Shown here: positions 3,192 through 25,913 of the stretch, one piece after another | Position numbering within the stretch: the first letter of the stretch is position 1 | Layout: every line of letters begins with the position of its first letter | Virus record (IMG/VR): IMGVR_UViG_3300032092_004397 | Span: 1 to 28,503 of that record | DNA length: 28,503 nucleotides | Direction: 5' to 3' (one strand) | Origin: a virus | Notes under the pieces: generated by a model | What the model saw: the letters and a program-made list of their open reading frames with translations, nothing else | What the model was told of the DNA's origin: nothing | The model's database searches: none | Position numbers and translations under genes: made by a program

Positions 3192-3806
3192 TCAGTGTAG
3201 CCGTTTTGTGCGGCTGCGCTCAAAGGCCTCGAGAGCAGCTTTGCGCTTCTGGGCGATGGTGCGGACATTTTCGATTATGCGCTCTGCGCCGAAATCGACC
3301 GAATTGAAGGGGCCGCCATACCAGCGGACGAGGTCCTTCCTCTGAGGATGGTGAGGTTTTGCCATGGCCTCGATGAAGTCCATGAAGCCGGGCGGGCCGC
3401 CCACATCTTCTGGTGGGGCAGTGCGCTCACCGTCGACAAAGAGAGGATAGTCGGTGCCGGGTGTCCCATCGATGACCTCTTCCACGATGATGCGATGCTG
3501 CCAGTCATCTCCAAAATCGTAGGTATAGCGCAGTTCTGTAATGCCACGATCCATAAGAGTGCCGAGGCGCATGCTCTTTGCTTGGAAAATCTTGCGGCCC
3601 CAGGCTGCGCCGGTGGGATCGGTTTCTCCATAAACAGCTTCGCCCACTTTGAACTGGTAGAGGTGGCAGTTCTCCCAAGGCATGACTGCCTGAATGATCT
3701 CGTGCAGCGCACGGAGGTTTGTTGTCAGACTGACGTCAACCCGCCGCCAGATGCGTGGCGCAATGTGCTCGAGTTCAATCCTGATGCGGGCGATCTTTAG
3801 GGGCAT
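3192..3806 (-). CDS. plasmid pRiA4b ORF-3 family protein
   Basis: The 204-aa protein belongs to the pRiA4b ORF-3-like family, known from plasmids, mobile elements and chromosomes; its function is unestablished. Family features are an N-terminal IELEHIAPRIWRRVDV strand, LRALHEIIQAVMPWENCHLY, the YDFGDDWQHRI motif, and a C-terminal CGGP-like DVGGPPGF segment. Translation starts at ATG 3804-3806, because the conserved N-terminus begins there; the frame extends upstream to 4184 only by antisense overlap with the next two phage genes. It lies on the minus strand between terminase and the gpW-like gene. Its stop is 10 nt from the terminase stop, so it looks like an inserted cargo gene. Confidence 0.85.
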   Translation of the reverse strand: MPLKIARIRIELEHIAPRIWRRVDVSLTTNLRALHEIIQAVMPWENCHLYQFKVGEAVYGETDPTGAAWGRKIFQAKSMRLGTLMDRGITELRYTYDFGDDWQHRIIVEEVIDGTPGTDYPLFVDGERTAPPEDVGGPPGFMDFIEAMAKPHHPQRKDLVRWYGGPFNSVDFGAERIIENVRTIAQKRKAALEAFERSRTKRLH

Positions 3807-3854
3807 GATGCGACCTGGCTGTGGCTTTGGTATGAAACCTAGAAGGTGATGGCG

Positions 3855-4070
3855 ATGGCCACAATCACAGACCTTCGCACCCGCCGAGAAACGCTGGCGG
3901 CACAACGCGCCTCGGGCGTGGCCCGCGTCAGCTATGACGGCAAGACGGTGGACTACCGGTCTTTGGCAGAGATCGACCGGGCCATTGAGGCTTTGGACCG
4001 TGAGATCGCGATGGCCGAAGGGCGTCGGATCGTGAGGCAGGTCCGCGTGACGACTGCCAAGGGGCTCTGA
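3855..4070 (+). CDS. gpW-like head-tail joining protein
   Basis: This small protein of 71 aa sits between terminase and portal, exactly where lambda-type phages encode gpW, which plugs the portal and helps tail attachment. It has a heptad-like C-terminal helix (SLAEIDRAIEALDREIAMAE) and a short strand region (ARVSYDGKTVDYRS), as in the gpW fold. I chose ATG 3855 because AGAAGG ends eight bases upstream; the in-frame GTG 3846 and ATG 3849 are too close to that site. Lambda gpW is 68 aa. Confidence 0.8.
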   Translation: MATITDLRTRRETLAAQRASGVARVSYDGKTVDYRSLAEIDRAIEALDREIAMAEGRRIVRQVRVTTAKGL

Positions 4071-4075
4071 CACAA

Positions 4076-5584
4076 ATGGGGATGTTTGACCTCTTTCGCC
4101 GCCCCAAGCCGGGCGGCACAGAAGCCATGCGCGCGCGGCTTGAAGGCGCGATGGCCAAGCGCCGCTTGCGCGGCTGGAACCCACCGCTCGAGAACATCAA
4201 CGCCCTGGTCGCTTCTGGTGGACCCAAACTGCTGGCGCGATCGCGCGAACTGGTGGTGACCAACGGTTATGCGGCGAACGCCTGCGAGGCCTTTGCGGCC
4301 AACCTTGTTGGGGACGGTATCAAGCCGTCATCGCTCATCACGGATGCGGCGCTGCGCGATCAGGTGCAAAAACTCTGGCTGGCATGGACAGACGAGGCGG
4401 ACGCAGATGGGCTGACCGATTTCTACGGCCTGCAAGCCATGGTCGCACGCGAGATGTTTGTGGCGGGCGAGTGCTTCGTGCGCTTGCGGCCCCGTCGGGC
4501 GGAGGATGAGCTCCTTGTGCCTCTGCAGTTGCAGCTTCTCCAATCCGAGATGCTGCCCTTTGAGAAAACGGAGACGGACCCGAACGGCAACCCCATCCGC
4601 TGTGGGGTTGAGTTCGATCTGATCGGACGGCGGGTGGCTTATCACTTCCGCCGCCGTCACCCGGGCGACAGCACAGACCAGCGGATGGCGGTGCCCGAGA
4701 CGGTGCGCGTGCCGGCTGAGGAGGTGCTGCACATCTACCGCCCCATCGATGCGGGCCAGATCCGAGGGTTGCCGCATGTGGCACCGGCCATGGTACGGCT
4801 CTTCCTCCTAGACCAGTACGATGATGCAGAGCTTGACCGGAAAAAGACCGCGGCGATGTTCGCGGGCTTTATAACGAAGACCGCACCCGAGGACCCGATG
4901 ATGGGGGAGGGGGCAGCTGATCTTGATGGGGCAGCCATTGCGAGCCTCGAGCCCGGAACCATGCAGGTGCTGCTGCCCGGAGAGGATGTGAAGTTCTCAA
5001 GCCCCGCTGATGTTGGTGGTGGCTATGAGGCGTTCCAATACCGCACGCTGCTGGCGGTCTCAGCCTCGCTGGGTCTGCCCTATCACCTCGTCACCGGCGA
5101 TGTCCGGCAGGCGAATTATTCGAGCTTGCGGGCAGAACTCGTCGAGTTCCGCCGCCGCATCGGCCAGTTGCAGCACGGGGTCATGGCCCATCAGTTGTGC
5201 CGCCCAATCTGGCGGCGTTGGTTGGAAACGGCTGTGCTCTCGGGTGCGCTGGACGCAGACCCCGCTGACGCGCGCGCGGTGCAATGGATCCCGCCCCGGT
5301 GGGATTGGGTCGACCCGTTGAAGGATATCCAAGCGCAGGTGCTGGCGATGGAGGCTGGGATCACCTCGCGACGCAAGGTTGTCGAGGGTACCGGCTACGA
5401 TATCGAAGAGGTCGATCGTGAGAACGCCGCGGATGCCAAGCGCGCATCGGATCTGGGGCTGACCTACCGCGCCAGCCCGGGCGAGACGCAGGGTGCACGG
5501 GCCACGCCAATCCAAGAGAAAAGCCCCAATTCTAATGACGGACCGTCCGACTTTAGCCGGGAAAACAACCCCGCAGAGGAGTAA
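4076..5584 (+). CDS. phage portal protein (lambda gpB family)
   Basis: This 502-aa protein would form the dodecameric ring at one capsid vertex through which DNA enters and to which the tail is joined. Length and position match lambda gpB (533 aa). Recognisable portal-type segments are LVVTNGYAANACEAFAAN, MVAREMFVAGECFVRLR, the AEEVLHIYRPIDAGQIRGLP region, and LPYHLVTGDVRQANYSSLRA followed by a long helix. The start overlaps nothing and lies six bases after the gpW-like stop; AAGGGG is about eleven bases upstream. The Pro/Ser/Asn-rich last 30 or so residues are probably disordered. The stop codon is directly followed by the protease gene. Confidence 0.93.
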   Translation: MGMFDLFRRPKPGGTEAMRARLEGAMAKRRLRGWNPPLENINALVASGGPKLLARSRELVVTNGYAANACEAFAANLVGDGIKPSSLITDAALRDQVQKLWLAWTDEADADGLTDFYGLQAMVAREMFVAGECFVRLRPRRAEDELLVPLQLQLLQSEMLPFEKTETDPNGNPIRCGVEFDLIGRRVAYHFRRRHPGDSTDQRMAVPETVRVPAEEVLHIYRPIDAGQIRGLPHVAPAMVRLFLLDQYDDAELDRKKTAAMFAGFITKTAPEDPMMGEGAADLDGAAIASLEPGTMQVLLPGEDVKFSSPADVGGGYEAFQYRTLLAVSASLGLPYHLVTGDVRQANYSSLRAELVEFRRRIGQLQHGVMAHQLCRPIWRRWLETAVLSGALDADPADARAVQWIPPRWDWVDPLKDIQAQVLAMEAGITSRRKVVEGTGYDIEEVDRENAADAKRASDLGLTYRASPGETQGARATPIQEKSPNSNDGPSDFSRENNPAEE

Positions 5585-5588
5585 CCCC

Positions 5589-6569: not shown

Positions 6570-6575
6570 TGTCTC

Positions 6576-6947
6576 ATGACCACACTCACGGAAGGCAAAC
6601 ACGCCGGTGGCTTCCTCGTTTGGGAAGTCTTGCGCGATTACACCCGAGAAACCGTCACCCTTGCCTCAGGTGCAGGCAAGATTGAGCCGGGTACGGTGCT
6701 GGGCAAGATCACCACGGGTGGCAAATACACTTGCCTCGCACCGGCCGCGACGAACGGCAGCCAGACGGCGGCCGGCATTCTCTGGGTCGGCGTGGATGCC
6801 AGTGCGGCCGATGTGCCGGGCGTCGTGATCCTGCGCGGCCCTGTGATCGTCAACCGCCACGACCTCGTTTGGCCCGCTGGTGCGACGGAGGCCCAGATCG
6901 CTGCGGCTACGACGGCGCTTGGTGCGCTTGGGATCGTGCTGCGCTGA
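6576..6947 (+). CDS. head decoration protein (gpD-like)
   Basis: This 123-aa protein lies directly between protease and major capsid genes, where lambda-type phages encode the trimeric capsid-stabilising protein gpD (110 aa). The middle shows the expected beta pattern: VTLASGAGKIEPGTVLGKIT, then AAGILWVGVDASAAD, then VVILRGPVIVNRHDLVWP. It would be added to the outside of the expanded capsid. The gene starts six bases after the protease stop. No lysine-rich or immunoglobulin-like extension is present. Confidence 0.88.
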   Translation: MTTLTEGKHAGGFLVWEVLRDYTRETVTLASGAGKIEPGTVLGKITTGGKYTCLAPAATNGSQTAAGILWVGVDASAADVPGVVILRGPVIVNRHDLVWPAGATEAQIAAATTALGALGIVLR

Positions 6948-6992
6948 GGCGGGGCCTTCGCCTCTCGAACATCACATCAAGGAGTTTGGCAT

Positions 6993-8006
6993 ATGGCCAG
7001 CATGGATATTTTTGAAGGCGATGCCTTCTCTGTCATCGAACTGACGCGCGCGTTGGAAAACATTCCCTTCAAGCCCGCGACCTTGTCGGGCTCGGGGCTC
7101 TTCGGCGAGCGGGGCGTGCGCACACGCACGGTCGTCATTGAAAGCCGTGATGGCACGCTTGCTCTGATCCCGTTCTCGGAGCGTGGTGCGTCTTATGACC
7201 AGCAGTCGCCGGAAAGCCGGCAGGTGCGGGCCTTTGTCTGCCGTCAGTTCAAGAAGCAGGATGTGCTTTGGGCGTCCGAGATCCAAGGCATCCGCGAGTT
7301 TGGCATGGAAAGCGTGACCCAGCAGGCTCAGGCCGAGGTTGCGCGCCGGATGCGCCGTCTACGCTCGGACGCTGAGGCCACTTTTGAATACCATTTGCTG
7401 AACGGCATTCAGGGTTTGGTGAAAGATCCGCGCGATGGAGCGGTGGTCGTCAATTTTGCCACGGAGTTTGGCATCACGCCAGCGGCAGAGGTCGACTTTG
7501 ATCTCGACAATACGGCACCGGCATCGGGGGCACTGCGCAAGCGGTGTCAGGCCTTGATCGAAAGCGTGGAAGAAAGCCTGGGTGGGCTGGCCGTTGGTCC
7601 CGTGCAACTGCGCGCGGAATGTGGCTCGGCCTTCTTTGCCGATCTCGTGGCCCATAAGGAAATCCGCGAGACCTATCTCAATACGGCGGCCGCGAATGAG
7701 TTGCGGGGCAGGGTGGTTGATGAGTTCACCTTCGGTGGCATCACCTTCCGCCGTTATGGCGGCAGTGCGACGATCGGCGTGCCGACGGATAAGGCCTTTT
7801 TCTATCCGCAAGGCATCGAGGGCCTTTTTGAAATCTACTTTGCGCCGGCTGACACGTTTGAGACGGTGAACACGCTGGGTCTGCCGCTTTATGCGCGGAT
7901 GATCCCAGACCGTGAGCGGGATGAATGGGTGCGGCTGGAAATCGAGTCGAACCCGCTGCCGATTTGCACCCGGCCACAGGTGCTGCGCAGTGCGAGGCGG
8001 ACGTGA
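6993..8006 (+). CDS. major capsid protein (gpE-like)
   Basis: At 337 aa it closely matches lambda gpE (341 aa) and carries family-typical segments: the N-terminal MDIFEGDAFSVIELTRALEN, then FKPATLSGSGLFGERGVRT, QVRAFVCRQFKKQDVLWAS, and near the C-terminus PLYARMIPDRERDEWVRLEI. It forms the icosahedral shell. AAGGAG lies eight bases before the start, a strong ribosome site as expected for the most abundant protein. The stop TGA overlaps the next start (TGATG, 8004-8008), so the two are translationally coupled. Confidence 0.95.
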   Translation: MASMDIFEGDAFSVIELTRALENIPFKPATLSGSGLFGERGVRTRTVVIESRDGTLALIPFSERGASYDQQSPESRQVRAFVCRQFKKQDVLWASEIQGIREFGMESVTQQAQAEVARRMRRLRSDAEATFEYHLLNGIQGLVKDPRDGAVVVNFATEFGITPAAEVDFDLDNTAPASGALRKRCQALIESVEESLGGLAVGPVQLRAECGSAFFADLVAHKEIRETYLNTAAANELRGRVVDEFTFGGITFRRYGGSATIGVPTDKAFFYPQGIEGLFEIYFAPADTFETVNTLGLPLYARMIPDRERDEWVRLEIESNPLPICTRPQVLRSARRT

Positions 8007-8317
8007 TGACGGCCTTTGCTGAGGCGGTTGGGGTCCTCTTCGGGGACCTCAACCTTGCGGTTGAGATTTGGCATCGCGATGGCGAGGGGCGTTTCACGAG
8101 GGGAAGGGGTGTCCTGCGCCGTCCGGATGAAATCACCGAGTTCGGCGCGGCGCGGCTCTTGTCTCAGACCACCCGGATTGATGTTCGGGTGGCGGATATT
8201 CCTGATCCCCGCCCGCAGGAGCAGATCCTGATCGGGGAAGAGACGTTCTTGATCCAGGGGGAGCCGCGGCGAGACCGCGAGCGGCTGATCTGGACTCTTG
8301 ATCTCTGCCCTGCGTGA
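8006..8317 (+). CDS. head-tail attachment protein (gpFII-like)
   Basis: This 103-aa protein follows the capsid gene with a one-base overlap. It is in the position of lambda gpFII, which caps the filled head and receives the tail. The C-terminal half (RIDVRVADIPDPRPQEQILIGEETFLIQGEPRRDRERLIWTLDL) reads as the small beta-barrel usual in head completion proteins of this type. The ATG at 8006 is preferred over the longer in-frame GTG at 7925, because the latter would lie inside the capsid gene and GAGGCGG precedes 8006. Confidence 0.72.
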   Translation: MTAFAEAVGVLFGDLNLAVEIWHRDGEGRFTRGRGVLRRPDEITEFGAARLLSQTTRIDVRVADIPDPRPQEQILIGEETFLIQGEPRRDRERLIWTLDLCPA

Positions 8318-8323
8318 CCCAGG

Positions 8324-8953
8324 GTGAAACTGAAGCTCAACATCGATCACGACATTGTTGCGATGATGCAAGCCGAACTCCTCGCCGGCGAAAAGGCGGT
8401 CTCGGACGCCGTTCGTGGCGCGGCGCTCCGTCTCAAGGCCGATTGGCGGGGTCAGATCGCGCAAGTCGGTCTTGGGCAACGGCTTGCCCGCACCATTCGA
8501 TCCGAGGCCTATCCCAAAGGGCAACCCAGCTTGAATGCGGCGGCGCTGGTCTGGTCCAACGCGCCGGTGATTGTCGGGGCGCATGACAGTGGGCCGCTGA
8601 TCCGGTCGAAGAGCGGCCTGTGGCTGGCGATCCCGACGGCGGCCGCGGGCAAATCCGCGCGGGGCGGACGGATAACGCCGGGTGAATGGGAGCGGCGGCG
8701 CGGATTATCGCTGCGGTTCATCTACCGGGCCCGGGGGCCGAGCCTTCTCGTGGCAGAGGGGCGGCTCAACAGTCGCGGGCTTGGGGTGGCCTCTCGCGCG
8801 AAATCTGGCAGGGGGCGGACAACAGTGCCGATCTTTCTGCTGGTGCGGCAGGTGAAGCTGGCGAAACGGCTGGATCTGGCGCGCGATGCCGAGCGGGCGA
8901 TGGCGTCAATCCCTGGCCAGATCGTCGCGGGTTGGGTCGGGGGAAAGCTATGA
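8324..8953 (+). CDS. phage tail-completion-type protein (gpZ-like / DUF6441-type)
   Basis: This 209-aa basic protein starts at GTG 8324, six bases after the preceding stop. Its position between head completion and tail terminator genes corresponds to lambda gpZ. Visible features are an amphipathic N-terminal helix (AVSDAVRGAALRLKADWRGQ), a segment reading SGLWLAIPTAAAGKSARGG, and a hydrophobic strand (TTVPIFLLVRQVKLAKRLDL) near the end. These resemble the uncharacterised proteins called DUF6441 in Rhodobacteraceae prophages, from memory and unchecked. The stop (8951-8953) overlaps an ATGATG that seems to have been the start of the next gene before a toxin-antitoxin cassette was inserted. Confidence 0.7.
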   Translation: MKLKLNIDHDIVAMMQAELLAGEKAVSDAVRGAALRLKADWRGQIAQVGLGQRLARTIRSEAYPKGQPSLNAAALVWSNAPVIVGAHDSGPLIRSKSGLWLAIPTAAAGKSARGGRITPGEWERRRGLSLRFIYRARGPSLLVAEGRLNSRGLGVASRAKSGRGRTTVPIFLLVRQVKLAKRLDLARDAERAMASIPGQIVAGWVGGKL

Positions 8954-8976
8954 TGCGGGCTTCCACGTCACTTTGA
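8950..8976 (+). pseudogene. possible 5' stub of a phage gene cut by the yhaV insertion
   Basis: An ATGATG overlaps the upstream stop codon as ATGA, the usual coupling arrangement in this operon. It opens an eight-codon frame (MMRASTSL) that ends inside the antisense 3' end of yhaV. The intact tail terminator-like gene on the other side of the cassette begins MPTPRE, only loosely similar. It could be the orphaned start of that gene, but similarity alone does not prove it. Confidence 0.3.
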
Positions 8977-9468
8977 GCTCATCAAATCGGCAAGTTGGCC
9001 GCCAGACTCTTGTACGCTTGCAAGCAGCGTGGCCCAGTTGCCAGGTGGATTTCCTTCGTCGAGCATCCCTTTGAAGACCCGATATGCATCCGTGCGGCTG
9101 TCATAGGCGCGTAACGTTGTATCGTCATTCACCCATGCAAGAATGATGACGCGGCTTTCGGCATGGAACCGGAAGAACAGCCGGTATTGCTGAAAGAACT
9201 TTGCGCGGAACCAGTGCCTGTGATCTTCGCCCAAGGTGTTGCCCTGCCGGAACTTCGGGTCGGTAGGGTCTGAGGGGATTTCTTCAAAGATCAGCTTGTT
9301 GATCGCGGCAAGCCGCTTCGTTGCGTTCTTGCTGCGATAGCCGGTCGGATTGGCAGCTTTGAGAGCCGCAACCTTAACGGCAAGCTCCTCCACCTGGGCA
9401 AGAAACAAAGGGTGCGCAAACAAAGTCCAACCGTTCACGGCCAGTTGCATAGAGGAACCGTCCGTCAT
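8968..9468 (-). CDS. yhaV: YhaV family toxin (type II TA)
   Basis: This 166-aa protein is a ribonuclease toxin of the RelE superfamily, normally held by PrlF. Family features are NGWTLFAHPLFLAQVEEL at the N-terminus, ATKRLAAINKLIFEEIPSDP, and the core QGNTLGEDHRHWFRAKFF followed by QYRLFFRF and IILAWVNDD. The last part (YRVFKGMLDEGNPPGNW) is also YhaV-like. It is full length. Its ATG (9466-9468) overlaps the stop of the antitoxin gene, so the pair is coupled. It is coded against the phage late operon, and its stop lies 14 nt from the stop of the upstream phage gene. Confidence 0.93.
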   Translation of the reverse strand: MTDGSSMQLAVNGWTLFAHPLFLAQVEELAVKVAALKAANPTGYRSKNATKRLAAINKLIFEEIPSDPTDPKFRQGNTLGEDHRHWFRAKFFQQYRLFFRFHAESRVIILAWVNDDTTLRAYDSRTDAYRVFKGMLDEGNPPGNWATLLASVQESGGQLADLMSSK

Positions 9469-9791
9469 TCATCGTCAGGCGACAAGGCCGCATCCAGATC
9501 GAGGTCTACACCCTCGACCAACTCAGAGAGTCTGGCGCGGAGCGGAGCGCCGAGGGCCTGAATATGCCCGGGGTTTTGGGCAATGTCCTGTGCAAGAAAG
9601 TTAAGGAAGGCACCAATAGCCGGATCCTCAACGGCGTCCGAGGCACGGCTGAGCAGCACATCACCTTCTGGCAGGATGGTATAGGAGATGCGATCTCGCT
9701 TTTTGAGGCCGAGCGCCTTGCGAACGACCCCTGGCATTGTCGTCTGATATTTGTCGGTCAGCGTGGATTCGACCTTGAGTTCAGCAAACAT
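9465..9791 (-). CDS. prlF: PrlF family antitoxin (type II TA)
   Basis: This 108-aa protein is the partner of YhaV. Residues about 3-50 form an AbrB/MazE-type swapped-hairpin DNA-binding domain (LKVESTLTDKYQTTMPGVVR, then ALGLKKRDRISYTI and GDVLLSRA). The C-terminal half is the toxin-binding tail (AIGAFLNFLAQDIAQNPGHI ... LVEGVDLDLD). ATG 9791 is chosen because GGGAG lies about six bases upstream; a GTG at 9806 would include that site. The antitoxin is expected to repress its own promoter, and an inverted repeat is present just upstream. Confidence 0.92.
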   Translation of the reverse strand: MFAELKVESTLTDKYQTTMPGVVRKALGLKKRDRISYTILPEGDVLLSRASDAVEDPAIGAFLNFLAQDIAQNPGHIQALGAPLRARLSELVEGVDLDLDAALSPDDE

Positions 9792-9817
9792 GTGATTCTC
9801 CCGCACGGCACCAGTCC

Positions 9818-9846
9818 AAGGTAAGGCAAATGCATTACCTATTCAA
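9818..9846 (-). promoter_or_regulatory. candidate prlF-yhaV promoter and operator
   Basis: Read on the minus strand, TTGAAT (9841-9846) and TACCTT (9818-9823) are 17 bases apart. The -35 is good and the -10 weak. An inverted repeat, AGGTAA (9819-9824) and TTACCT (9835-9840), occupies the spacer, where an AbrB-type antitoxin could bind. It lies about 27 bases upstream of the prlF start. This is pattern-based only. Confidence 0.35.
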
Positions 9847-9903
9847 GAACGCTGCCGCAACAGGCCTGATGTGCCCCAAGCTTTACTCAAATTTGGTACC
9901 GTA

Positions 9904-10323
9904 ATGCCAACCCCTCGCGAAACCATCCTCGCCGCGCTCCTGGCGCGTCTGTCAGCGCTGCCCGCCACAACCTTGCGCGGGGAGGTGCTGCCTGAGCGTA
10001 TTCCGCCTGCGGGCCTCTTAATCCTGCGCGACGGCAACCCCGGCGAGCCGGAGGTCACGCTGTCGCCCCTGCGCTATCATTACCGACATCGGGTAGAAAT
10101 CGAGGCTGTAGTTCAGGGAAGTGACCGCGACAGGGCTTTTGACACCCTTTGCGCCAGCATCGGCGCAGCGCTCGCGGCCGACCGCACGTTGGGCGGTCTC
10201 TGCGACTGGGTTGAAGCGGAAGCGCCGCAACCCGTCGATCTGCCGATGGAGGGGGCAGCGCAGGCGAAGGCGGCGGTCCTCGCCATCGTGCTCCATTATG
10301 CGCTGGCTGATCCGCTGGGCTGA
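9904..10323 (+). CDS. tail terminator-like protein (gpU position)
   Basis: This 139-aa protein lies between the gpZ-like and tail tube genes, as tail terminators do. Such proteins cap the tail tube when it reaches full length. Visible segments are ETILAALLARLSALPATTL, then ILRDGNPGEPEVTLSPLRYH, the strand HRVEIEAVVQG, and a helix DRAFDTLCASIGAALAADRT. Residues PQPVDLPMEGAAQAKAAVLA precede the final strand; this pattern is common in gpU-type proteins. I chose ATG 9904; a GTG at 9871 is possible. The ribosome site is poor, which fits a gene that lost its original coupled start to the upstream cassette. Its last 28 bases overlap the 3' end of the convergent bactofilin gene. Confidence 0.68.
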   Translation: MPTPRETILAALLARLSALPATTLRGEVLPERIPPAGLLILRDGNPGEPEVTLSPLRYHYRHRVEIEAVVQGSDRDRAFDTLCASIGAALAADRTLGGLCDWVEAEAPQPVDLPMEGAAQAKAAVLAIVLHYALADPLG

Positions 10324-10700
10324 GCGGCCAATTCAGCAGGGCCCGGCTCGGCAGAAGCCACCTCAACCGGCGCCATCTTGCGGATCTCCGCTTCAAGGAT
10401 CGCCCCGGCTTCAACTGCGAGCGTCTTATACTGCAGCGATCCGGTCATCTGACCTGTCGTTCCGACCGTCACATCCTCGATAAAGGCAGAGCCTTGAACA
10501 GACCCATAGATCTTGGCCTCAAGGGCTTCAACGTCCCCCATCACCTCAGCGCCTTGCTGCAAGGTTAGAGTAGCGGCTCTGATATTGCCTGTGACTTTGG
10601 CCTGAACCACCAAGGTCCCGGCATGGCGGATATCTCCGGTCACTTCGAGATCGGCCGCCAGAAACGAAGGTTTTGCCGAATGCCTTGCTGCGCTGTCCAT
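10296..10700 (-). CDS. bactofilin family polymer-forming protein
   Basis: This 134-aa protein has the right-handed beta-helix repeats of bactofilins (DUF583/CcmA). Successive short turns of Gly-hydrophobic pattern run from LEVTGDIRHAGTLVVQAKV through VTGNIRAATLTLQQGAEV, GDVEALEAKIYGSVQGSAFI and GSLQYKTLAVEAGAILEAEI. Short, disordered N- and C-terminal tails flank it, as usual. Bactofilins self-assemble into nucleotide-free filaments linked to cell shape and polarity. The start has AGGA six bases upstream. It is coded against the tail operon, and its 3' end runs 28 nt into the tail terminator-like gene. A structural phage role is possible, but a cargo gene is more likely. Confidence 0.85.
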   Translation of the reverse strand: MDSAARHSAKPSFLAADLEVTGDIRHAGTLVVQAKVTGNIRAATLTLQQGAEVMGDVEALEAKIYGSVQGSAFIEDVTVGTTGQMTGSLQYKTLAVEAGAILEAEIRKMAPVEVASAEPGPAELAAQPSGSASA

Positions 10701-10878: not shown

Positions 10879-11319
10879 TCAGCAGGTGCCGTAAAAGCCG
10901 CCAGAGTAGCGGCAATATTCTGTGGCAACGCCCATGGAGATCATGGCTTCGGCGATATCTTGGCCATTTGGCAAGAAACACTGGCCGACGAGGCGCTGGT
11001 AACGATCGATGTCGATGAGGACGCAGGTCAGAGGTTGGCCGTCGATCAAGCCGCGCATCGCCTTGGTGGCAGCAGAACCGCCGCGCTCATCACGTTCTGG
11101 CGCATCAAGGCCCCAGACGCGGATGGCAGGGACCACGCCACTCAGATGAAACGTGTCTCCATCGGTAACGCGGGTCACGGTTCCGGAAAACTCTTCGGCG
11201 GTTGCCGAGGTCGGTGCGAAGGCTGCGGCAAGGCACATCGTCCATACTGCCGCGAAAGTTACGCCCCGCGAGACACCCGTGTCGGCCAAGTCAGCCATAT
11301 ATCTGGACAATCTGTTCAT
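10879..11319 (-). CDS. secreted thermonuclease-like protein (SNase family)
   Basis: This 146-aa protein starts at ATG 11317-11319 with a hydrophobic signal segment (FAAVWTMCLAAAFA) ending in a likely AxA cleavage site before EEF. The mature part is a staphylococcal nuclease fold: VTRVTDGDTFHL, the active-site strand IRVWGLDAPERDERGG (Arg and Glu of the IR...APE motif), and DRYQRLVGQCFLPNGQDIAE with the second conserved Arg. The C-terminus (EYCRYSGGFYGTC) has two cysteines. It would act in the periplasm or outside, cutting DNA or RNA with calcium. It is minus-strand cargo between tail terminator-like and tail tube genes. An upstream in-frame start at 11364 would add 15 residues ahead of the signal and is less likely. 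Confidence 0.85.
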   Translation of the reverse strand: MNRLSRYMADLADTGVSRGVTFAAVWTMCLAAAFAPTSATAEEFSGTVTRVTDGDTFHLSGVVPAIRVWGLDAPERDERGGSAATKAMRGLIDGQPLTCVLIDIDRYQRLVGQCFLPNGQDIAEAMISMGVATEYCRYSGGFYGTC

Positions 11320-11390
11320 TCTGCACCCCCGGCCCAGGAAGCTGGCAGGCTGCGCTGTGAACACAATCTATCTTAAGAGGGAGGAAGAGG

Positions 11391-13033: not shown

Positions 13034-13324
13034 TTAGGCCGCTCGAAGGGGCTGGATTCCTGTGAGGTCTACCTTCTCGCGGGCGCGGGCCAAATCCCAG
13101 GACCGTTGCAGGTTCATCCAGTATTCTGGCGTGGTGCCAAAGAAGGTTGCAAGACGCATGGCCGTGTCGGCAGACAAGGTCGTCTCGCCCTTGACCAGCC
13201 GTTCGATCCGGGTGCGCGGCACAGCCAGGCGCTTTGCTAGGGCTGGCGCACTCATCGCCAGCGGCTCCAGATAGAGCAACGAGAGCACTTCACCAGGATG
13301 GGAAGGATTATGCAGCAGGCTCAT
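13034..13324 (-). CDS. higA: HigA family antitoxin (XRE-type)
   Basis: This 96-aa protein begins with the HigA signature HNPSHPGEVLSLLYLEPL. It carries a helix-turn-helix (ALAKRLAVPRTRIERLVKGE, about residues 28-47) and the typical TTLSADTAMRLATFFGTTPE followed by YWMNLQRSWDL. It neutralises the HigB ribonuclease and represses the shared promoter. It lies 11 bases downstream of higB, in the toxin-first order characteristic of HigBA. Its stop is 20 nt from the stop of the tail assembly chaperone, to which it is convergent. Confidence 0.93.
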   Translation of the reverse strand: MSLLHNPSHPGEVLSLLYLEPLAMSAPALAKRLAVPRTRIERLVKGETTLSADTAMRLATFFGTTPEYWMNLQRSWDLARAREKVDLTGIQPLRAA

Positions 13325-13335: not shown

Positions 13336-13617
13336 TCAGTGATAATCTACAAGTTCAACTTCGGCTGGACCTTGATCTGTCCAGACAAAACAAATGCGCC
13401 ACTGGCCGTTGATGCGGACCGAATGCTGGCCGATCCTGTCGCCAACCAAGGCTTCCAGATGGTTGCCCGGCGGAAAGCGCAAGTCTTCCAAAACAACCGC
13501 CGCATCCAACGCAGAAAGCATAGCACGCGTTCGCCGTACCAGATCCGCCGGAAAGCCTTTGCCGAAACGGCCAGAGAGCGCCTGCTCAGTCAGTTTGCCG
13601 CGAATGCTGATGATCAT
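13336..13617 (-). CDS. higB: HigB toxin (RelE/ParE superfamily)
   Basis: This 93-aa mRNA interferase cuts mRNA at the ribosome. Family features are LTEQALSGRFGKGFP, RRTRAMLSALDAAVVLEDLR, FPPGNHLEALVGDR and the C-terminal strands QHSVRINGQWRICFVW and AEVELVDYH. I chose ATG 13617 (MIISIRG), which matches the family N-terminus; an ATG at 13626 would add three residues and sits against the operator. It is the first gene of the pair and is transcribed against the phage operon. Confidence 0.92.
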   Translation of the reverse strand: MIISIRGKLTEQALSGRFGKGFPADLVRRTRAMLSALDAAVVLEDLRFPPGNHLEALVGDRIGQHSVRINGQWRICFVWTDQGPAEVELVDYH

Positions 13618-13626
13618 GTCAAGCAT

Positions 13627-13644: not shown

Positions 13645-13711
13645 AAAATCAAGGAGCCCGAGCCATGTCACAAAAAAGGTCTCCGTCCGGCTTGTCGCCG
13701 TGGAGGCTGTC
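13645..13711 (+). pseudogene. 5' stub of the tape measure gene
   Basis: This stretch repeats the ribosome site and first codons of the tape measure gene at 14353-14413. By hand alignment 53 of 65 columns match. The shared parts include AAAATCAAGGA, an ATG at 13665, and TCTCCGTCCG. In the tape measure frame both encode VSVRLVAV, with mostly synonymous differences. The stub has lost one base after the start, so the frame from ATG 13665 is shifted. It then runs straight into the 3' end of vapC (stop 13710-13712). It is best read as a leftover of an older tape measure start, cut off by the VapBC cassette. Confidence 0.8.
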
Positions 13712-14090
13712 AGCCCTTGATCTTCTCGATCAGGGTGACCCCCGGCAGGCCCTCGAAATGCTTGTCGCAGGTCAGCAGTTCCGCTCCTTTGGCGCGGGCG
13801 GTCGCAAACATGATGGCATCGGCCGTTGCAAGCTTGTGGTTGCGGCAGGCCTCTGCCGCCGCGATAGCGATTTCTGTATCGAGCGGCACCACTTGGCAGA
13901 CTTGGGTAAAGGCAATGACCTGATCTGCCTTGTCCTCGCCCGCTTCCCGCGTCAGCCACTTCGCCAGTTCCAGCTGAACCATGCTGGGCACAAGCCAGTC
14001 GGACTGTTCAGGCAGATGCGCCGCCAGTTTGTCGCCGGTCGGCGACCCGATCAGCCATTCGATCCAGGCGGATGTATCGACGAGGATCAT
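13710..14090 (-). CDS. vapC: VapC toxin, PIN domain (first VapBC pair)
   Basis: This 126-aa PIN-domain ribonuclease has the expected four acidic residues: Asp5 in MILVDTSAWIEWL, Glu41 in SMVQLELAKW, Asp91 in LATADAIMFATA and Asp109 in LLTCDKHF. Toxins of this family typically cut initiator tRNA or rRNA with magnesium. The start overlaps the vapB stop by one base (TGATG on the minus strand). Its stop abuts the truncated tape measure stub. It is full length and apparently intact. Confidence 0.93.
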   Translation of the reverse strand: MILVDTSAWIEWLIGSPTGDKLAAHLPEQSDWLVPSMVQLELAKWLTREAGEDKADQVIAFTQVCQVVPLDTEIAIAAAEACRNHKLATADAIMFATARAKGAELLTCDKHFEGLPGVTLIEKIKG

Positions 14091-14302
14091 CAGAAGCGGT
14101 CCGCTCGATCACGGTAATCGGCGGAAGATGCGCCGCGGGCCAGGCCCTTTAGAGCATCACGTTTGGGAACCGGGACCAGTAAGACGCCAGTGCCCTTCGG
14201 AATGAACGCAAAGGTTAGACCTGCCTCCCAATGCTGGGCGCTGCGGATCGCCTTTGGGATGGAGATTTGGAACTTCGAGGAAAGGGTCGCGGTCTCGGAC
14301 AT
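14090..14302 (-). CDS. vapB: VapB antitoxin, AbrB/MazE type (first pair)
   Basis: This 70-aa protein has the swapped-hairpin domain: ATLSSKFQISIPKAIRSA, then WEAGLTFAFIPKGTGVLLVP. The C-terminal tail DALKGLARGASSADYRDR is the kind that threads into the PIN toxin and ends in a charged arginine segment. ATG 14302 is preferred because AAGG lies nine bases upstream; ATG 14308 is only three bases from it. A palindrome lies about 20 bases upstream and could be its operator. Confidence 0.9.
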   Translation of the reverse strand: MSETATLSSKFQISIPKAIRSAQHWEAGLTFAFIPKGTGVLLVPVPKRDALKGLARGASSADYRDRADRF

Positions 14303-14320
14303 AATCATACGCCTTCATGA

Positions 14321-14330
14321 TCGATATCGA
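14321..14330. promoter_or_regulatory. palindrome upstream of vapB (possible operator)
   Basis: The perfect ten-base palindrome TCGATATCGA lies 19 bases upstream of the vapB start and 44 bases before the tape measure start, in the only intergenic space available to a vapBC promoter. Antitoxins of this class bind palindromes over their promoters. Such a short palindrome can occur by chance. Confidence 0.3.
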
Positions 14331-14373
14331 CAACGTAAGATGACTGCAGTCCAAAATCAAGGATCCCGCCTCC

Positions 14374-17463: not shown

Positions 17464-18024
17464 ATGTCGCGCGATCTCACCGCCGCCTTTGCGTCTGCAC
17501 TGGCGGATCAGACCCTGCGGCCAGTTATCTTCTTTGAGGGCCAGTTTGCTTCGGGCTGGGTGCGGATCTGGTCAGGCTTGGGAGAGGTGAGCTTGAATGG
17601 CCAGACTTGGTCTGGAGCTGGGTCGCTCTTGGGCCTCGGCTCCATGGATGAGACCGGCGAGGTGGTGGCGGGTGGCACGGCGGTGTCACTTTCCGGCGTG
17701 CCGCTCGATCTGGTGCAGATGGCCATCGAGGAAGCGCGGCAGGGATTGCCGGGCCGGATTTGGCTTGGGCTCTTGGCAGAGGATGGCAGCATCATCGCCA
17801 ACCCGGTGCAGGCCTTCTCCGGCCGCCTCGATGTTCCAGAAATCAAGGATGATGCAGACACCTGCACAATCACCATCAGCTATGAAAGCCGTCTCATAGA
17901 CCTGACCGTGGCGCGGGCCTGGCGTTACACCCATGAAAGCCAGCAGGTGATGTTCCCTGGAGATTTGGGGTTTGAATATGTCACCGCGATCCAGGATCGA
18001 GAGATCACTTGGGGGCGGGGGTAA
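17464..18024 (+). CDS. DUF2163-like minor tail protein
   Basis: This 186-aa protein begins MSRDLTAAFASALADQTLRP, typical of the DUF2163/BR0599 group found before the NlpC/P60 gene in alphaproteobacterial phages and gene transfer agents. The middle has TGEVVAGGTAVSLSGVPLDL and the strand series VQAFSGRLDVPEIKDDADTC and TITISYESRLIDL. It ends YTHESQQVMFPGDLGFEYV...ITWGRG. It probably forms part of the tail-tip hub. It may be slightly truncated at the C-terminus, because the next bases are a cassette junction with vapC 24 nt away. The family C-terminal zinc-binding half is absent. Confidence 0.8.
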   Translation: MSRDLTAAFASALADQTLRPVIFFEGQFASGWVRIWSGLGEVSLNGQTWSGAGSLLGLGSMDETGEVVAGGTAVSLSGVPLDLVQMAIEEARQGLPGRIWLGLLAEDGSIIANPVQAFSGRLDVPEIKDDADTCTITISYESRLIDLTVARAWRYTHESQQVMFPGDLGFEYVTAIQDREITWGRG

Positions 18025-18048: not shown

Positions 18049-18447
18049 TCAGGATTTGAACGGGTTGGTGATTGTAAGCCGCCCCTCGACCAAGAGGCCA
18101 TCCTGCATGTCTTCAGAATAGAGCGTGGTGCATTGATTTTGCAGGGCTGCGGCGACGATCATCGCATCATAAACAGAAAATCCGTAACGCTCGCCAAGGG
18201 CGCGCCCAATCTCATGGGTCGTGGGCGTCAGGGAAACGACAGGGCAAATCTGGCATATGCTGTCGAGGAAAACGCCCGCTTCCTGCCAGCTCATCGCGGC
18301 TTTGCGGATACAGTTGACGAGGGTCTCGTTGAGGACCTGAACGCTGACCATCCCGCCTTGGGCGATGAGGTGTTCGGCCTTCTCGGCCTTTGTGCTCTCA
18401 TCCAGCAAATAGAGGATAACGTTTGTGTCGAAAAAATTAGCGCTCAT
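18049..18447 (-). CDS. vapC: VapC toxin, PIN domain (second VapBC pair)
   Basis: This 132-aa PIN ribonuclease carries Asp7 in FFDTNVILYLLD, Glu41 in VLNETLVNCI, Asp94 in GFSVYDAMIVAAA and Asp113 in YSEDMQDG. It belongs to a different subfamily from the first pair, so the two are not duplicates. ATG 18447 is chosen because the PIN core starts at residue 4; an in-frame start at 18459 would add four residues. It overlaps the vapB stop by 11 bases. Its stop is 24 nt from the stop of the DUF2163-like gene, to which it is convergent. Confidence 0.92.
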   Translation of the reverse strand: MSANFFDTNVILYLLDESTKAEKAEHLIAQGGMVSVQVLNETLVNCIRKAAMSWQEAGVFLDSICQICPVVSLTPTTHEIGRALGERYGFSVYDAMIVAAALQNQCTTLYSEDMQDGLLVEGRLTITNPFKS

Positions 18448-18664
18448 GTGTATCGTCACGGCTTAGACGCGCGCTGGCGGGAAGGCGCCCACGGAAGGGC
18501 CGCAGTGCGGCCAAGACTTCCTCGGGTCGCTGATGACGCGCGAGGGCAATCCCGGCCCCATCGGCATGAATATCAATGTCGTCACCCTCTTTGAGGCCCA
18601 GTTGGCGAACAAGCTCGGCGGGGAGACGGATGGCAAGAGAATTACCCCATTTTGCGACTTGCAT
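18437..18664 (-). CDS. vapB: VapB antitoxin, AbrB/MazE type (second pair)
   Basis: This 75-aa protein has the swapped-hairpin fold in MQVAKWGNSLAIRLPAELVR, then QLGLKEGDDIDIHADGAGIA, followed by a toxin-binding C-terminal tail (EEVLAALRPFRGRLPASARL). It is full length. It represses its own promoter, and a candidate inverted repeat lies upstream. The 11-base overlap with vapC implies coupled translation. Confidence 0.92.
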   Translation of the reverse strand: MQVAKWGNSLAIRLPAELVRQLGLKEGDDIDIHADGAGIALARHQRPEEVLAALRPFRGRLPASARLSRDDTHER

Positions 18665-19185: not shown

Positions 19186-19492
19186 CGTTGCTGTCGGGAA
19201 GCTGCGCGGCCCAGGCCTCCCCACCCGGACCGCGCATCGGGGCTCACATGGACCTGAGGCCTGGCAGCTTGGGTCACTGCATGGTCCAACGTCACCCCGC
19301 ATTCATCTGGCAATAAATCGGTTGGCAATTGGTCGGTGCGGGGCGCATGGTCCATGCCCGCGAAATGCGCTTCAAGAGTATGTGCCCGGTAAAAGCGGTA
19401 CTCGCAGCACATCTTTAACACTTGAAGTGCAAAATACCTACGTTTTTTAGCTGAGGCGGCTCGCGCGCCCCTCAAACCCAGGACTCTCGCCG
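19186..19492. other. 307-base gap before the gpJ-like gene
   Basis: No supported gene lies here. CCAGGCCTC (19211-19219) faces GAGGCCTGG (19256-19264), extended by GCTG (19201-19204) with CAGC (19265-19268), which could fold into a bulged hairpin. Short open frames on both strands show no recognisable protein. It may be the remains of a lost gene, such as a gpI-like tail protein, or of another cassette. Confidence 0.4.
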
Positions 19493-23127: not shown

Positions 23128-23128
23128 C

Positions 23129-23692: not shown

Positions 23693-23801
23693 GCCAAGGC
23701 GGTTTGACCTCCCCCCTGTTTGAGGCCTGACCCCAGAGCTCACCCGACCTCCTGAACCGTCATCGCCAGAAATAGCCCTGGTGGCACCCACCAACCTCAA
23801 G

Positions 23802-23829
23802 CGCCGTCCCGTCTCCGGGGCGGCGTTTT
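23802..23829 (+). terminator. Rho-independent terminator just before the endolysin
   Basis: CGCCGTCCCG (23802-23811) pairs with CGGGGCGGCG (23816-23825) across a TCTC loop: ten pairs with one G-U. It is followed by TTTT. This is the clearest intrinsic terminator in the window. It ends 20 bases before the endolysin start, so endolysin expression would need readthrough or antitermination, or a promoter I cannot see. Confidence 0.7.
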
Positions 23830-23848
23830 GCATTGCATGGAGAAGACC

Positions 23849-24781: not shown

Positions 24782-25035
24782 TCCCGTTCGTCACGCAGGT
24801 CTTCGCCGCCATCGCTCGCCGTGCCCTCTTTTGGGGCGGGCTGGCCCTGATCTTCTTCGCCGCTTTGCGCGTGGCCAGCCGTCAGGGCCGCCATGCGGCC
24901 AAGGCCGACTTTGCCATCCGCCGTGCCGAGGCTCGCATTCGGGCACTGCAGACATCCAAGGAAATCCGTCATGAGGTTCAAAACGCTGACCGTACTGATC
25001 TTGAGCGCCGGGTTGATCGCTGGATGCGGGATTGA
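24778..25035 (+). CDS. inner-membrane spanin-like protein (Rz-like)
   Basis: This 85-aa protein overlaps the endolysin stop by four bases. It has a single N-terminal membrane helix (about 15-32, RALFWGGLALIFFAALRV) followed by a charged coiled-coil-like segment (AKADFAIRRAEARIRALQTS), as in i-spanins. Its last 65 bases overlap the start of a lipoprotein gene in another frame, the classic embedded Rz/Rz1 plan. It is much shorter than lambda Rz (153 aa), so a spanin role is inferred from context and architecture. Confidence 0.72.
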   Translation: MIPFVTQVFAAIARRALFWGGLALIFFAALRVASRQGRHAAKADFAIRRAEARIRALQTSKEIRHEVQNADRTDLERRVDRWMRD

Positions 25036-25174
25036 GCCGCGGGGGGTGCGGAACGACTGTGATTGGGCAGAGCCGATCCGGCCCTCGCGCGCGGATGTGA
25101 TGAGCGACGGCACGCTGGCGCAGATCCTTGCCCATAATGAGGTCGGTGCCCGGCTTTGCGGGTGGGCGCCATGA
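24971..25174 (+). CDS. outer-membrane lipoprotein, spanin-like (Rz1-like)
   Basis: This 67-aa frame starts inside the previous gene, +1 relative to it. The N-terminus is a lipoprotein signal, FKTLTVLILSAGLIAGC, with lipobox IAGC and cleavage before Cys19. The mature peptide is about 49 residues with several prolines (GIEPRGVRND, AEPIRPSRAD), like a short o-spanin. It would bridge to the inner-membrane partner to fuse the two membranes in the last step of lysis. It ends at TGA overlapping an ATG that starts the truncated stub of the 26033 gene. Confidence 0.78.
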   Translation: MRFKTLTVLILSAGLIAGCGIEPRGVRNDCDWAEPIRPSRADVMSDGTLAQILAHNEVGARLCGWAP

Positions 25175-25213
25175 CCAACACGCATCTTCAGGAAGGACCG
25201 GTCATCCTGATCG
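25171..25213 (+). pseudogene. 5' stub of the 26033 gene
   Basis: ATG 25171 overlaps the spanin lipoprotein stop as ATGA and encodes MTNTHLQEGPVILI, which matches MTTSLQEGPVILI at the start of the intact gene at 26033. From CTT (25186) 26 of 28 bases are identical, and the two differences are at third codon positions (GGA/GGT and ATC/ATT). After 25213 similarity stops and the frame runs into the antisense 3' end of the YecA-like gene, ending at 25314. This is a clear remnant of the original coupled start. Confidence 0.85.
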
Positions 25214-25229
25214 CGAGCAGAGGCGGACC

Positions 25230-25913
25230 TCAGTTCTTGCCGCAGCACTGTTTGTATTTGCGGCCTGAGCCGCAGCGACAGGGATCGTTGCGACCGGGGC
25301 GTTGCGCACTCTGATGGGGGCGGCCCGGCAGGTTGGCCGCCTGTGTGCGGCTGAGTTCCGGCCGCGATTGGTGCAGGATCGTCGCCACGCAGTTCGGGAT
25401 CAGGTCCGGCGCTTCGAGATCAATCTCGTCGATCTCTTCGTCAGAGAAGTTGCTCTCGCCGAGATTGATATCTGCCAAAGCCATAATAAAGATCATGGTC
25501 TCACGGGTCTCATCATCGGCGCGATCAAGGAGCGCCTCCCAGGCCTTGGGCCGCAAAGCCATGGCATGGGTGAACCCGGCGATCCAGGCTTCCCAGAGAA
25601 CTTCCTCGCTGATGGAATCGATCTCATAGATGGGCTCGAGCCAGAGTGACCGGGTCATTGCCTCGGCCACCGCATTGTAATGCGCCATCACGGCACTGAT
25701 GGTCTCTTGCGCGGTCTTGAGGTCGGGGAACCCGGCATCTTTGCGCTCGCCCCAGACATCAGCAAGCCAGTCTGAGGGCGGGATCATCTCTGGGCAGGCG
25801 AGAATGCCGGTGATGAAGCCATCCAGTTCGCTCAAGGTCATTGGCTCGTCGTCGATGGGCAGGGCTGACAGGAGATCATCGAGGTGCTGCAGCCGTTCGT
25901 CGTCCTGATCCAT
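25230..25913 (-). CDS. YecA/UPF0149 family protein with C-terminal SEC-C metal-binding motif
   Basis: This 227-aa protein opens with LSELDGFITGILACPEMIPP, the UPF0149 signature, then WLADVWGERK, LEPIYEIDSISEEVLWEA and WIAGFTHAMALRPKAWEALL. The C-terminus ends in the SEC-C motif NDPCRCGSGRKYKQCCGKN, a zinc- or iron-binding segment also found on SecA. Family members have no settled activity; a link to protein translocation or ribosome-associated processes has been proposed. The ATG at 25913 follows AAGGA eight or nine bases upstream; an in-frame start at 25970 would add 19 residues. It is antisense cargo between lysis and fibre genes. Confidence 0.85.
   Translation of the reverse strand: MDQDDERLQHLDDLLSALPIDDEPMTLSELDGFITGILACPEMIPPSDWLADVWGERKDAGFPDLKTAQETISAVMAHYNAVAEAMTRSLWLEPIYEIDSISEEVLWEAWIAGFTHAMALRPKAWEALLDRADDETRETMIFIMALADINLGESNFSDEEIDEIDLEAPDLIPNCVATILHQSRPELSRTQAANLPGRPHQSAQRPGRNDPCRCGSGRKYKQCCGKN

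What the first reader, a model, noticed from the sequence alone, without database searches (positions are those of the whole stretch)
3192..25913. Eight antisense cassettes, including four toxin-antitoxin modules, inside one phage late operon
The minus-strand cassettes are pRiA4b ORF-3, PrlF-YhaV, bactofilin, nuclease, HigBA, two VapBC and a YecA/SEC-C protein. All are opposite to the structural genes and sit between otherwise tightly packed phage genes. Prophages with one or two morons are common; four complete modules of three types within the structural block is unusual. It suggests strong selection for stabilising the element, or a phage lineage that recruits such modules at gene boundaries.
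Basis: partly seen in the sequence, partly recalled or inferred. Interest (0 to 1): 0.8.

Follow-up and report, generated by a model that had tools for sequence, protein, structure and literature searches.

The report
Phage operon with swappable antisense cargo
A bacterial virus related to prophages of the Rhodobacter group carries eight gene cassettes, four of them toxin-antitoxin pairs, backwards between its structural genes; related viruses carry different cargo at the same few gene boundaries, and one boundary is nearly always filled, usually with something different.

Summary
In detail: all eight minus-strand cassettes are present with Pfam support, though VapB1 is below cut-off. They fill six gene boundaries. 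A 99.6%-identical contig from another metagenome carries the four cassettes (five genes) in its stretch in the same places.

Relatives with 94-97% identical tail tube, tape measure and J proteins carry other cassettes or none, so "one fixed set" is refuted. One boundary, DUF6441 to tail terminator, is filled in 140 of 143 loci and in 55 of 69 of the second sample, usually with unrelated DNA. Seven of 16 boundaries never carry an insert, some in small samples. Inserts are AT-richer, mostly antisense, sit between core stop and start codons, and keep a ribosome-binding site for the next gene. Footprinted toxin-antitoxin cassettes have conserved promoter/operator-like boxes.

Best reading: morons at preferred slots of a late operon, expressed in the lysogen; expression, addiction and defence are inferred. 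Known kind, extreme extent: five of six scored slots filled, the maximum among nine comparable loci.

The parts
3192..3806 (-). cassette 1, pRiA4b ORF-3-like protein (204 aa), between TerL and the gpW-like gene
   Evidence: Pfam PF07929 4.4e-57; gene call 3192-3806; boundary filled in 9 of 78 loci
8968..9468 (-). cassette 2, YhaV toxin, hotspot between DUF6441 and tail terminator
   Evidence: Pfam PF11663 6.3e-59; boundary filled in 140 of 143 loci
9465..9806 (-). cassette 2, PrlF antitoxin (an ATG start at 9791 is also possible)
   Evidence: Pfam PF15937 6.4e-36; gene call 9465-9791
9818..9846 (-). candidate prlF promoter/operator: TTGAAT, 17 nt, TACCTT, with the inverted repeat AGGTAA/TTACCT between the boxes
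   Evidence: conserved in 4 PrlF loci; coordinates and spacing; not reported by the consensus scan
10296..10700 (-). cassette 3, bactofilin, overlapping the end of the tail terminator gene
   Evidence: Pfam PF04519 2e-18
10879..11364 (-). cassette 4, staphylococcal-nuclease-like protein, same boundary as cassette 3
   Evidence: Pfam PF00565 2e-9; gene call 10879-11298
13034..13324 (-). cassette 5, HigA-like antitoxin, between DUF7697 and the tape measure gene
   Evidence: Pfam HTH_3 9.4e-7
13336..13626 (-). cassette 5, HigB toxin
   Evidence: Pfam PF05015 3.5e-13; closest solved chain 6f8s, 'Putative Killer protein', E 5.5e-24
13710..14090 (-). cassette 6, VapC1 PIN-domain toxin, same boundary as cassette 5
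   Evidence: Pfam PF01850 4.7e-21
14090..14308 (-). cassette 6, VapB1 MazE-like antitoxin
   Evidence: Pfam PF04014 E 0.0011, below cut-off; 81% VapC homologue on plasmid pOT1-5 sits next to an annotated AbrB/MazE protein
14309..14373 (-). 65-bp edge between vapB1 and tape measure start: -35-like box 14351-14363 whose other strand carries AAGGA upstream of the tape measure ATG, and -10-like box 14332-14340
   Evidence: footprint over 19 loci; coordinates
18049..18459 (-). cassette 7, VapC2 PIN-domain toxin, between gene 17464-18024 and DUF6950
   Evidence: Pfam PF01850 4.3e-12; closest solved chain 8wmm, PcrIIC1, E 2.4e-11
18437..18664 (-). cassette 7, VapB2 MazE-family antitoxin
   Evidence: Pfam PF04014 6.5e-15
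25230..25970 (-). cassette 8, YecA-like UPF0149 plus SEC-C protein, after the lysis genes (gene call 25230-25913)
   Evidence: Pfam PF03695 1.3e-33, PF02810 2.3e-7; gene call; a minus-strand 227-aa gene stands there in L087 and L095, none in L083, L084, L085, L086
1214..24781 (+). host late operon: TerL, gpW-like, portal, ClpP, D, capsid E, head-tail attachment, DUF6441, tail terminator, tail tube, chaperone, DUF7697, tape measure, tip genes, S74, lysis region
   Evidence: Pfam and PHROGs

Best explanation
These are morons: self-contained accessory operons inserted, mostly antisense, at a few tolerated boundaries of the late operon of a prophage family of Rhodobacterales. Shown by sequence: the insert lies between the stop codon of one core gene and the start codon of the next; in the toxin-antitoxin cassettes footprinted, conserved promoter- and operator-like boxes lie at the head end on the minus strand; the downstream core gene keeps a plus-strand Shine-Dalgarno site; the insert is AT-richer than its flanks; cargo changes between close relatives while the slot stays. 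Inferred: in the lysogen, where the late operon is silent, the cassettes are transcribed from their own promoters and serve prophage and host (toxin-antitoxin addiction or abortive infection, other cargo); at induction late transcription reads through them in antisense and they are not expressed as late genes. Inferred: cargo spreads between related phages mainly by recombination in the conserved flanks, so a cassette stays in its slot; new cargo enters rarely by illegitimate joining. Why the DUF6441/tail-terminator boundary is hottest is a guess: the downstream gene is needed in few copies and tolerates weak initiation.
For: Slots: derep counts 140/143 (DUF6441-TT), 29/173, 31/177, 12/30, 9/78, 9/188, 4/85, 3/134, against 0/71, 0/32, 0/31, 0/14, 0/13, 0/12, 0/6 at others; 12/30 against 0/63 gives p=2e-7. 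Independent sample: 55/69 at the hotspot, empty sites overlapping by 4 bp. GC: hotspot inserts 0.564, flanks 0.683, lower in 142 of 142, 55 of 55. Orientation by gene-set type: 27 minus, 5 plus outside the hotspot (p=1e-4); 43 minus, 21 plus, 18 both in it (p=0.008). Shine-Dalgarno energies at occupied tail tube, tape measure, DUF6950 and tail terminator starts beat random sites inside the inserts. Footprints: VapBC1 19 loci, RHH/ParE 12, Gp49/HTH 6, PrlF 4. Movement: YhaV dS 0.018 and PrlF 0.024 to L097, flanks 0.27 each; a tract near window 8924-9944 is 0-3% divergent, with 5-15% outside in most bins. No DNA match between inserts of different slots. Close relatives differ. Cultured relatives have the boundaries empty.
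Against: No RNA or phenotype was seen. The consensus scan found 2 promoter-like sites against 3.2 expected and 13 terminator-like sites against 13.6 expected, so own terminators are not shown and own promoters rest on footprints. The test that inserts are more alike than both flanks is modest: 18 against 7 (10 between) for a random or a highest-flank pair per family, p=0.04; 14 against 12 with the least similar insert pair. The Shine-Dalgarno site may belong to the core leader rather than to the cassette; at the hotspot it is weak (55% at -3 kcal/mol or lower, 30% in random sites). A third of the single-orientation hotspot types run with the late genes. In 21 of the 140 hotspot inserts no gene was called.
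Confidence: 0.82

Rival explanations
1. Prophage decay: the late operon is no longer under selection and genes accumulate in a dying element.
For: The window is a 28.5-kb fragment; no integrase or repressor was identified by the searches I made in it, and activity was not tested.
Against: The structural genes are open and under purifying selection in the close comparisons: dN/dS 0.05-0.12 for tail tube and tape measure against L082, L084, L085, L097, and 0.09-0.14 for J. Inserts stop at codon boundaries and never break a core gene in the boundaries measured. A 99.6% identical contig occurs in another metagenome.
Confidence: 0.06
2. The cassettes are late (lytic) genes in disguise: their products act in the lytic cycle or in the virion, and antisense orientation is incidental.
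For: 21 of 82 hotspot gene-set types are plus only; the YecA-like protein between tube and chaperone is plus-strand in 8 loci.
Against: Minus bias, lower GC, promoter/operator footprints on the minus strand, toxin-antitoxin and metal-resistance families, and empty slots in cultured relatives.
Confidence: 0.05
3. Cargo is placed by a dedicated site-specific or transposition mechanism at the slots.
For: Extreme site preference and sharp codon-edge junctions.
Against: No shared sequence at the two edges was seen in the junction listing by eye; slots differ in sequence; no recombinase is common to the inserts; no DNA is shared between slots. No dedicated motif search of the edges was run.
Confidence: 0.07

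Closest known systems
Morons of lambdoid and Mu-like phages (definition read as passages in PMC4378225)
   Same: Accessory genes between two genes that are adjacent in relatives, odd base composition, often expressed from the prophage; P. aeruginosa Mu-like phages have nine regions of plasticity with 4 to 7 used per genome.
   Different: Here mostly multi-gene toxin-antitoxin operons, antisense, inside the structural block, with one boundary filled in 140 of 143 loci. Terminators, usual in morons, were not demonstrated.
P2/P4 hotspots of antiviral systems (passages in PMC9122126)
   Same: Different cargo, including a DprA system (here L141) and other defence-model matches, at one locus.
   Different: Those lie next to cos, with either orientation reported for P4; here the slot is inside the late operon between a DUF6441 gene and the tail terminator. 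No defence assay exists for this family in what I read.
Noncontiguous operons (passages in PMC11087260, S. aureus 80alpha tha/ith)
   Same: An operon interrupted by an antisense gene with its own promoter; sense and antisense states exclude each other.
   Different: There one small antisense gene with transcripts mapped; here six interruptions, and no transcripts known.
Paracoccus prophage toxin-antitoxin pairs and arsB opposite to the surrounding genes (PMC6536676, section 11 and part of section 15 read, other passages)
   Same: Antisense TA pairs in Rhodobacterales prophages; the Pben1 pair stabilised a plasmid in P. versutus, the Pkon1 pair did not; arsB lies opposite to structural genes in PD6 and PD20.
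   Different: One cassette per phage is described in the text I read; slots and exchange were not in the passages seen. None of the 31 phage records matched by the tail tube is a Paracoccus phage.

Membership tests
moron | inserted between two genes that are adjacent in relatives | tested here: met
   empty and filled versions of the boundaries
moron | base composition unlike the neighbours | tested here: met
   lower GC in 142 of 142 hotspot inserts; 27 of 28, 28 of 28, 11 of 11, 9 of 9 and 8 of 8 at five other slots; not at MCP|HTJ (2 of 4)
moron | own promoter | tested here: inconclusive
   conserved footprints, but the consensus scan is at chance and no RNA data
moron | own terminator (usual, per PMC4378225) | tested here: inconclusive
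   13 terminator-like sites, 13.6 expected; coarse scan
moron | expressed in the lysogen | not testable with these tools
   no transcriptome
type II toxin-antitoxin modules | toxin and antitoxin families side by side in one operon | tested here: met
   PrlF-YhaV, HigBA and VapBC2 by Pfam; VapBC1 with antitoxin below cut-off
type II toxin-antitoxin modules | toxic alone, neutralised by partner | not testable with these tools
   needs expression
noncontiguous operon | antisense gene inside an operon | tested here: met
   gene order
noncontiguous operon | overlapping sense and antisense transcripts | not testable with these tools
   no RNA data
defence hotspot (P2/P4 type) | diverse systems at one locus | tested here: met
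   82 gene-set types among 119 derep inserts with called genes, inflated where a gene was missed; 48 of 857 locus pairs with 87-93% mean flank identity share insert DNA
defence hotspot (P2/P4 type) | anti-phage activity of the cargo | not testable with these tools
   model matches only
defence hotspot (P2/P4 type) | same locus as in P2 or P4 (next to cos, between gpA and gpQ in P2) | tested here: not met
   slot lies between DUF6441 and the tail terminator gene

The most novel reading that the evidence does not exclude
The late operon is a multi-slot noncontiguous operon in which orientation is the switch: several toxin-antitoxin and defence cassettes run from autoregulated promoters in the lysogen and damp leaky late transcription, and late readthrough at induction turns all of them off together, so that the phage escapes its own cargo. 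The head end of a cassette does double duty: in VapBC1 the -35-like box of the cassette promoter is, read on the other strand, the Shine-Dalgarno site of the tape measure gene.
Probability: 0.3. Interest if true: 0.75.

Novelty: new variant of a known kind. Interest (0 to 1): 0.57.

Why it matters
It gives a dense, countable natural experiment on how cargo enters a temperate phage: fixed slots, empty sites, filled sites and scars in hundreds of relatives. The near-saturated boundary is a simple address (the gap between DUF6441 and the tail terminator gene) at which to look for unknown toxin-antitoxin, defence and resistance genes in Rhodobacterales. It also makes a regulatory question testable: does antisense orientation keep accessory genes on in the lysogen and off in the lytic cycle?

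Tried and rejected
Whole-window megablast against phages and plasmids found nothing; protein search was needed. The consensus promoter and terminator scan gave chance numbers and was replaced by footprints. My first version of the insert-against-flank test took the most similar insert pair per family (23 of 36 above both flanks, 3 below); that choice favours the claim, so it was repeated with other choices, which weakened it. A search for pairs with both flanks at 93% or more and unrelated inserts had 8 pairs and found none, too few to say anything. Site-specific insertion was considered and not supported; no edge motif search was run. Decay was considered and rejected on dN/dS. L084, called empty in the view, has 334 bp of insert without a called gene. 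My gene caller, trained on the core genes and on the window cassettes, misses foreign genes: 22 hotspot inserts without a call. Toxin-antitoxin labels of clusters were assigned by me from Pfam results and by eye. Families in alignment mode are not tied to single loci, and only the first 25 families are shown where more matched. The portal Shine-Dalgarno row does not test the TerL slot, because the gpW-like gene lies between. L261, L282, L284 and L303 of the second sample come from contigs already in the first and were not removed from the count. PDB searches with YhaV and VapC1 found nothing.
Full report
What is there. The window is an IMG/VR virus record of 28,503 bp. Its plus strand is a lambda-like late operon: GpA terminase, gpW-like gene, portal, ClpP, decoration protein, capsid E, head-tail attachment, DUF6441, tail terminator, tail tube, chaperone, DUF7697, tape measure, tip genes, S74 proteins and a lysis region. 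They fill six boundaries: TerL|gpW-like; DUF6441|tail terminator; tail terminator|tail tube (bactofilin and SNase); DUF7697|tape measure (HigBA and VapBC1); gene 17464-18024|DUF6950; and a place after the lysis genes (YecA-like). A codon-usage gene caller trained on the core genes plus the window's own cassettes returned all 12 cassette genes; because the cassettes were in the training set, this is a consistency check and not independent evidence.

Not an artefact. Contig L242, from another metagenome, is 99.58% identical over 9,610 bp and carries pRiA4b, YhaV, PrlF, bactofilin and SNase in place. dN/dS of cassette genes against relatives is 0.00-0.37 for 11 of 12 genes; VapC2 (0.88) has one relative and dS 0.022.

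Relatives. The tail tube and tape measure proteins found relatives in viral contigs and the tail tube in GTDB genomes, each call capped at the best 80. That gave 234 loci, some of them overlapping pieces of one contig or copies in two collections. The named genomes are mostly Rhodobacteraceae or Paracoccaceae, so the host is inferred to be of Rhodobacterales. Close relatives differ in cargo: L082 (tape measure 95%) has another pair at the hotspot; L084 (94%) has yet another there, an extra 297-aa gene beside SNase, and no VapBC2; L085/L086 (94%) lack HigBA and VapBC1; L097 shares PrlF-YhaV, bactofilin and SNase but has no pRiA4b, HigBA, VapBC1 or VapBC2.

Slots. After removal of near-identical loci per slot, inserts of more than 150 bp beyond baseline were found at DUF6441|TT in 140 of 143, TT|tube 29 of 173, TAC|TMP 31 of 177, g174|DUF6950 12 of 30, TerL|portal 9 of 78, tube|TAC 9 of 188, MCP|HTJ 4 of 85, HTJ|DUF6441 3 of 134, and DUF6950|J 5 of 29 (no gene called in those five). 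None at D|MCP (71), TMP|g168 (32), g168|g174 (31), ClpP|D (14), J|S74a (13), portal|ClpP (12), S74a|hol (6). The last four samples are small. 12 of 30 against 0 of 63 gives p=2e-7; D|MCP 0 of 71 against TerL|portal 9 of 78 gives p=0.003. A second sample found with DUF6441 (73 new loci; four come from contigs already used) gave 55 of 69 filled at the hotspot, with empty sites in which the two genes overlap by 4 bp. L095 of the first sample is also empty there.

Content of the hotspot. Clustered genes give 82 gene-set types, 65 of them in one locus. This is inflated where a gene was missed; 21 of 140 inserts had no called gene. A measure without gene calls: among locus pairs with mean flank identity from 87 to below 93%, 48 of 857 share insert DNA (pairs are not independent). 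Families among the 139 cluster representatives include ParE, ParD, RHH, CcdAB, Gp49, RES, GNAT, SocA/Panacea and DarT1-associated NADAR; MerT, MerF and MerR; TauE, cation efflux, LysE, EamA and MFS; QueC, DprA and transposases. PADLOC models matched include ShosA, ShosT, RmrA and DrmC; these are names of models, not tested functions. A toxin-antitoxin component was recognised in 40 of 121 hotspot inserts with called genes.

Load. Of 50 loci in which seven slots could be scored, the window alone has four filled; of nine with six slots scored including g174|DUF6950, it has the maximum, five. Over the four central slots (126 loci: 81 with one, 34 with two, 10 with three, 1 with none) it ties with nine others at three, and L084 has nine minus-strand cassette genes to the window's eight.

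Anatomy. In minus-only inserts the cassette's stop codon lies a median 21 nt from the upstream core stop at the hotspot (n=65), 22 at TT|tube (27), 24 at g174|DUF6950 (7), 9 at TerL (9) and overlapping by 11 at TAC|TMP (27). The downstream core gene keeps a Shine-Dalgarno site: tail tube -6.9 kcal/mol when occupied (28), -7.8 when empty (144), -2.1 at random places in the inserts (140); tape measure -5.3, -6.9, -2.4; DUF6950 -4.7, -6.6, -1.6; tail terminator -3.1 occupied (134), -1.7 random, with one empty site only. Whether the site came with the cassette or is the old leader is not settled. Insert GC is lower than the flanks in 142 of 142 hotspot inserts (0.564 against 0.683) and in all or nearly all at five other slots; MCP|HTJ shows no difference. 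By type, 27 minus to 5 plus outside the hotspot, 43 to 21 with 18 mixed inside.

Control elements. On the minus strand at the head end, 19 VapBC1 loci share a TCCTTG box, a TCTTACGT box and ATCGAT while the DNA between them varies. The other strand of the first box carries AAGGA just upstream of the tape measure ATG. RHH/ParE (12 loci), Gp49/HTH (6 loci, GGCTATATAGCC) and PrlF-YhaV (4 loci, TTGAAT-17-TACCTT with an inverted repeat, window 9818-9846) show such boxes too. The SNase cassettes (18 loci) and the pRiA4b cassettes (6 loci, where the aligned stretch includes the gpW-like gene) showed no comparably clear boxes. Consensus scans on their own are at chance. No transcription was seen.

Movement. 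Against L097, YhaV has dS 0.018 and PrlF 0.024, while DUF6441 and the tail terminator have 0.27 each; the low-divergence tract runs from about 8924 to 9944. Against L084, HigA and HigB have dS 0 and VapC1 0.045, while chaperone and tape measure have 0.18 and 0.28; VapB1 at the edge has 0.37. Over 35 insert families, inserts exceed both flanks in 18 and fall below both in 7 (p=0.04) for a random or highest-flank pair, 23 against 4 for the most similar insert pair, and 14 against 12 for the least similar. So exchange of single cassettes is clear in some cases and only a tendency overall. No DNA match joins inserts of different slots; at protein level a YecA-like family occurs at tube|TAC and once at TerL|portal, and a transposase family at two slots. 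Outside phages, YhaV homologues occur in 320 plasmid records and a VapC1 homologue (81%) lies near a relaxase gene on Haematobacter plasmid pOT1-5.

Cultured relatives. Tail tube homologues occur in 31 phage records, 11 of them Rhodobacter capsulatus phages. In the four of these examined no minus-strand gene is annotated from terminase to tip, and DUF6441 and tail terminator homologues (44-47% and 50-54% identity) overlap by 4 bp. PMC8601537 (passages read) lists the lifestyle of this cluster as not determined and its plaques as turbid. Synechococcus phage Sc-Yong805-1 has no minus-strand gene from the terminase to the J-like gene.

What is known. Passages of PMC4378225 define morons and describe nine plastic regions in Mu-like Pseudomonas phages; PMC9122126 (passages) describes P2/P4 hotspots; PMC11087260 (passages) describes noncontiguous operons in a staphylococcal prophage; PMC7067206 (passages) calls an own-promoter gene antisense to lytic genes characteristic of morons; PMC10884400 (passages) has a moron in a late operon. 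PMC6536676 (section 11, part of section 15, passages) reports toxin-antitoxin pairs and arsB opposite to neighbouring genes in Paracoccus prophages, and plasmid stabilisation by one pair. Searches for this slot system in print listed no paper that describes it, in a library without most subscription journals.

Verdict. The kind (morons, hotspots) is known; the degree (several slots in one structural operon, one nearly saturated, antisense bias) is a new variant.

Noticed in passing
window 259-660, minus strand: A 133-aa minus-strand gene call upstream of the terminase small subunit, with no convincing Pfam match; the four cultured R. capsulatus phages examined also have minus-strand genes just upstream of terS. 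Possibly a further slot.
   Followed up: partly
window 19186-19492: About 310 bp without a called gene between DUF6950 and the J-like gene; 5 of 29 loci have such a stretch, others a few bases.
   Followed up: no
L084, g174|DUF6950 boundary: 334 bp without a called gene where the window has VapBC2; looks like the scar of a lost cassette.
   Followed up: no
L179 (Paracoccus aminovorans) 6681-9563: Five called genes with mercury-resistance-like content fill the hotspot of a prophage (sequences; MerT, MerF, MerR and reductase families, not tied to loci there).
   Followed up: partly
L028:7823-9436 and seven other loci at the hotspot: Minus-strand family whose longest member has a Phage_Mu_F domain; function unclear.
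   Followed up: no
L082 against window, terminase to capsid: The head genes of L082 are only 30-43% identical in portal, D and capsid while its tail genes are about 95% identical: a head-module swap.
   Followed up: no
window 18049-18459: The closest solved sequence to VapC2 is PcrIIC1 (8wmm, E 2.4e-11).
   Followed up: no
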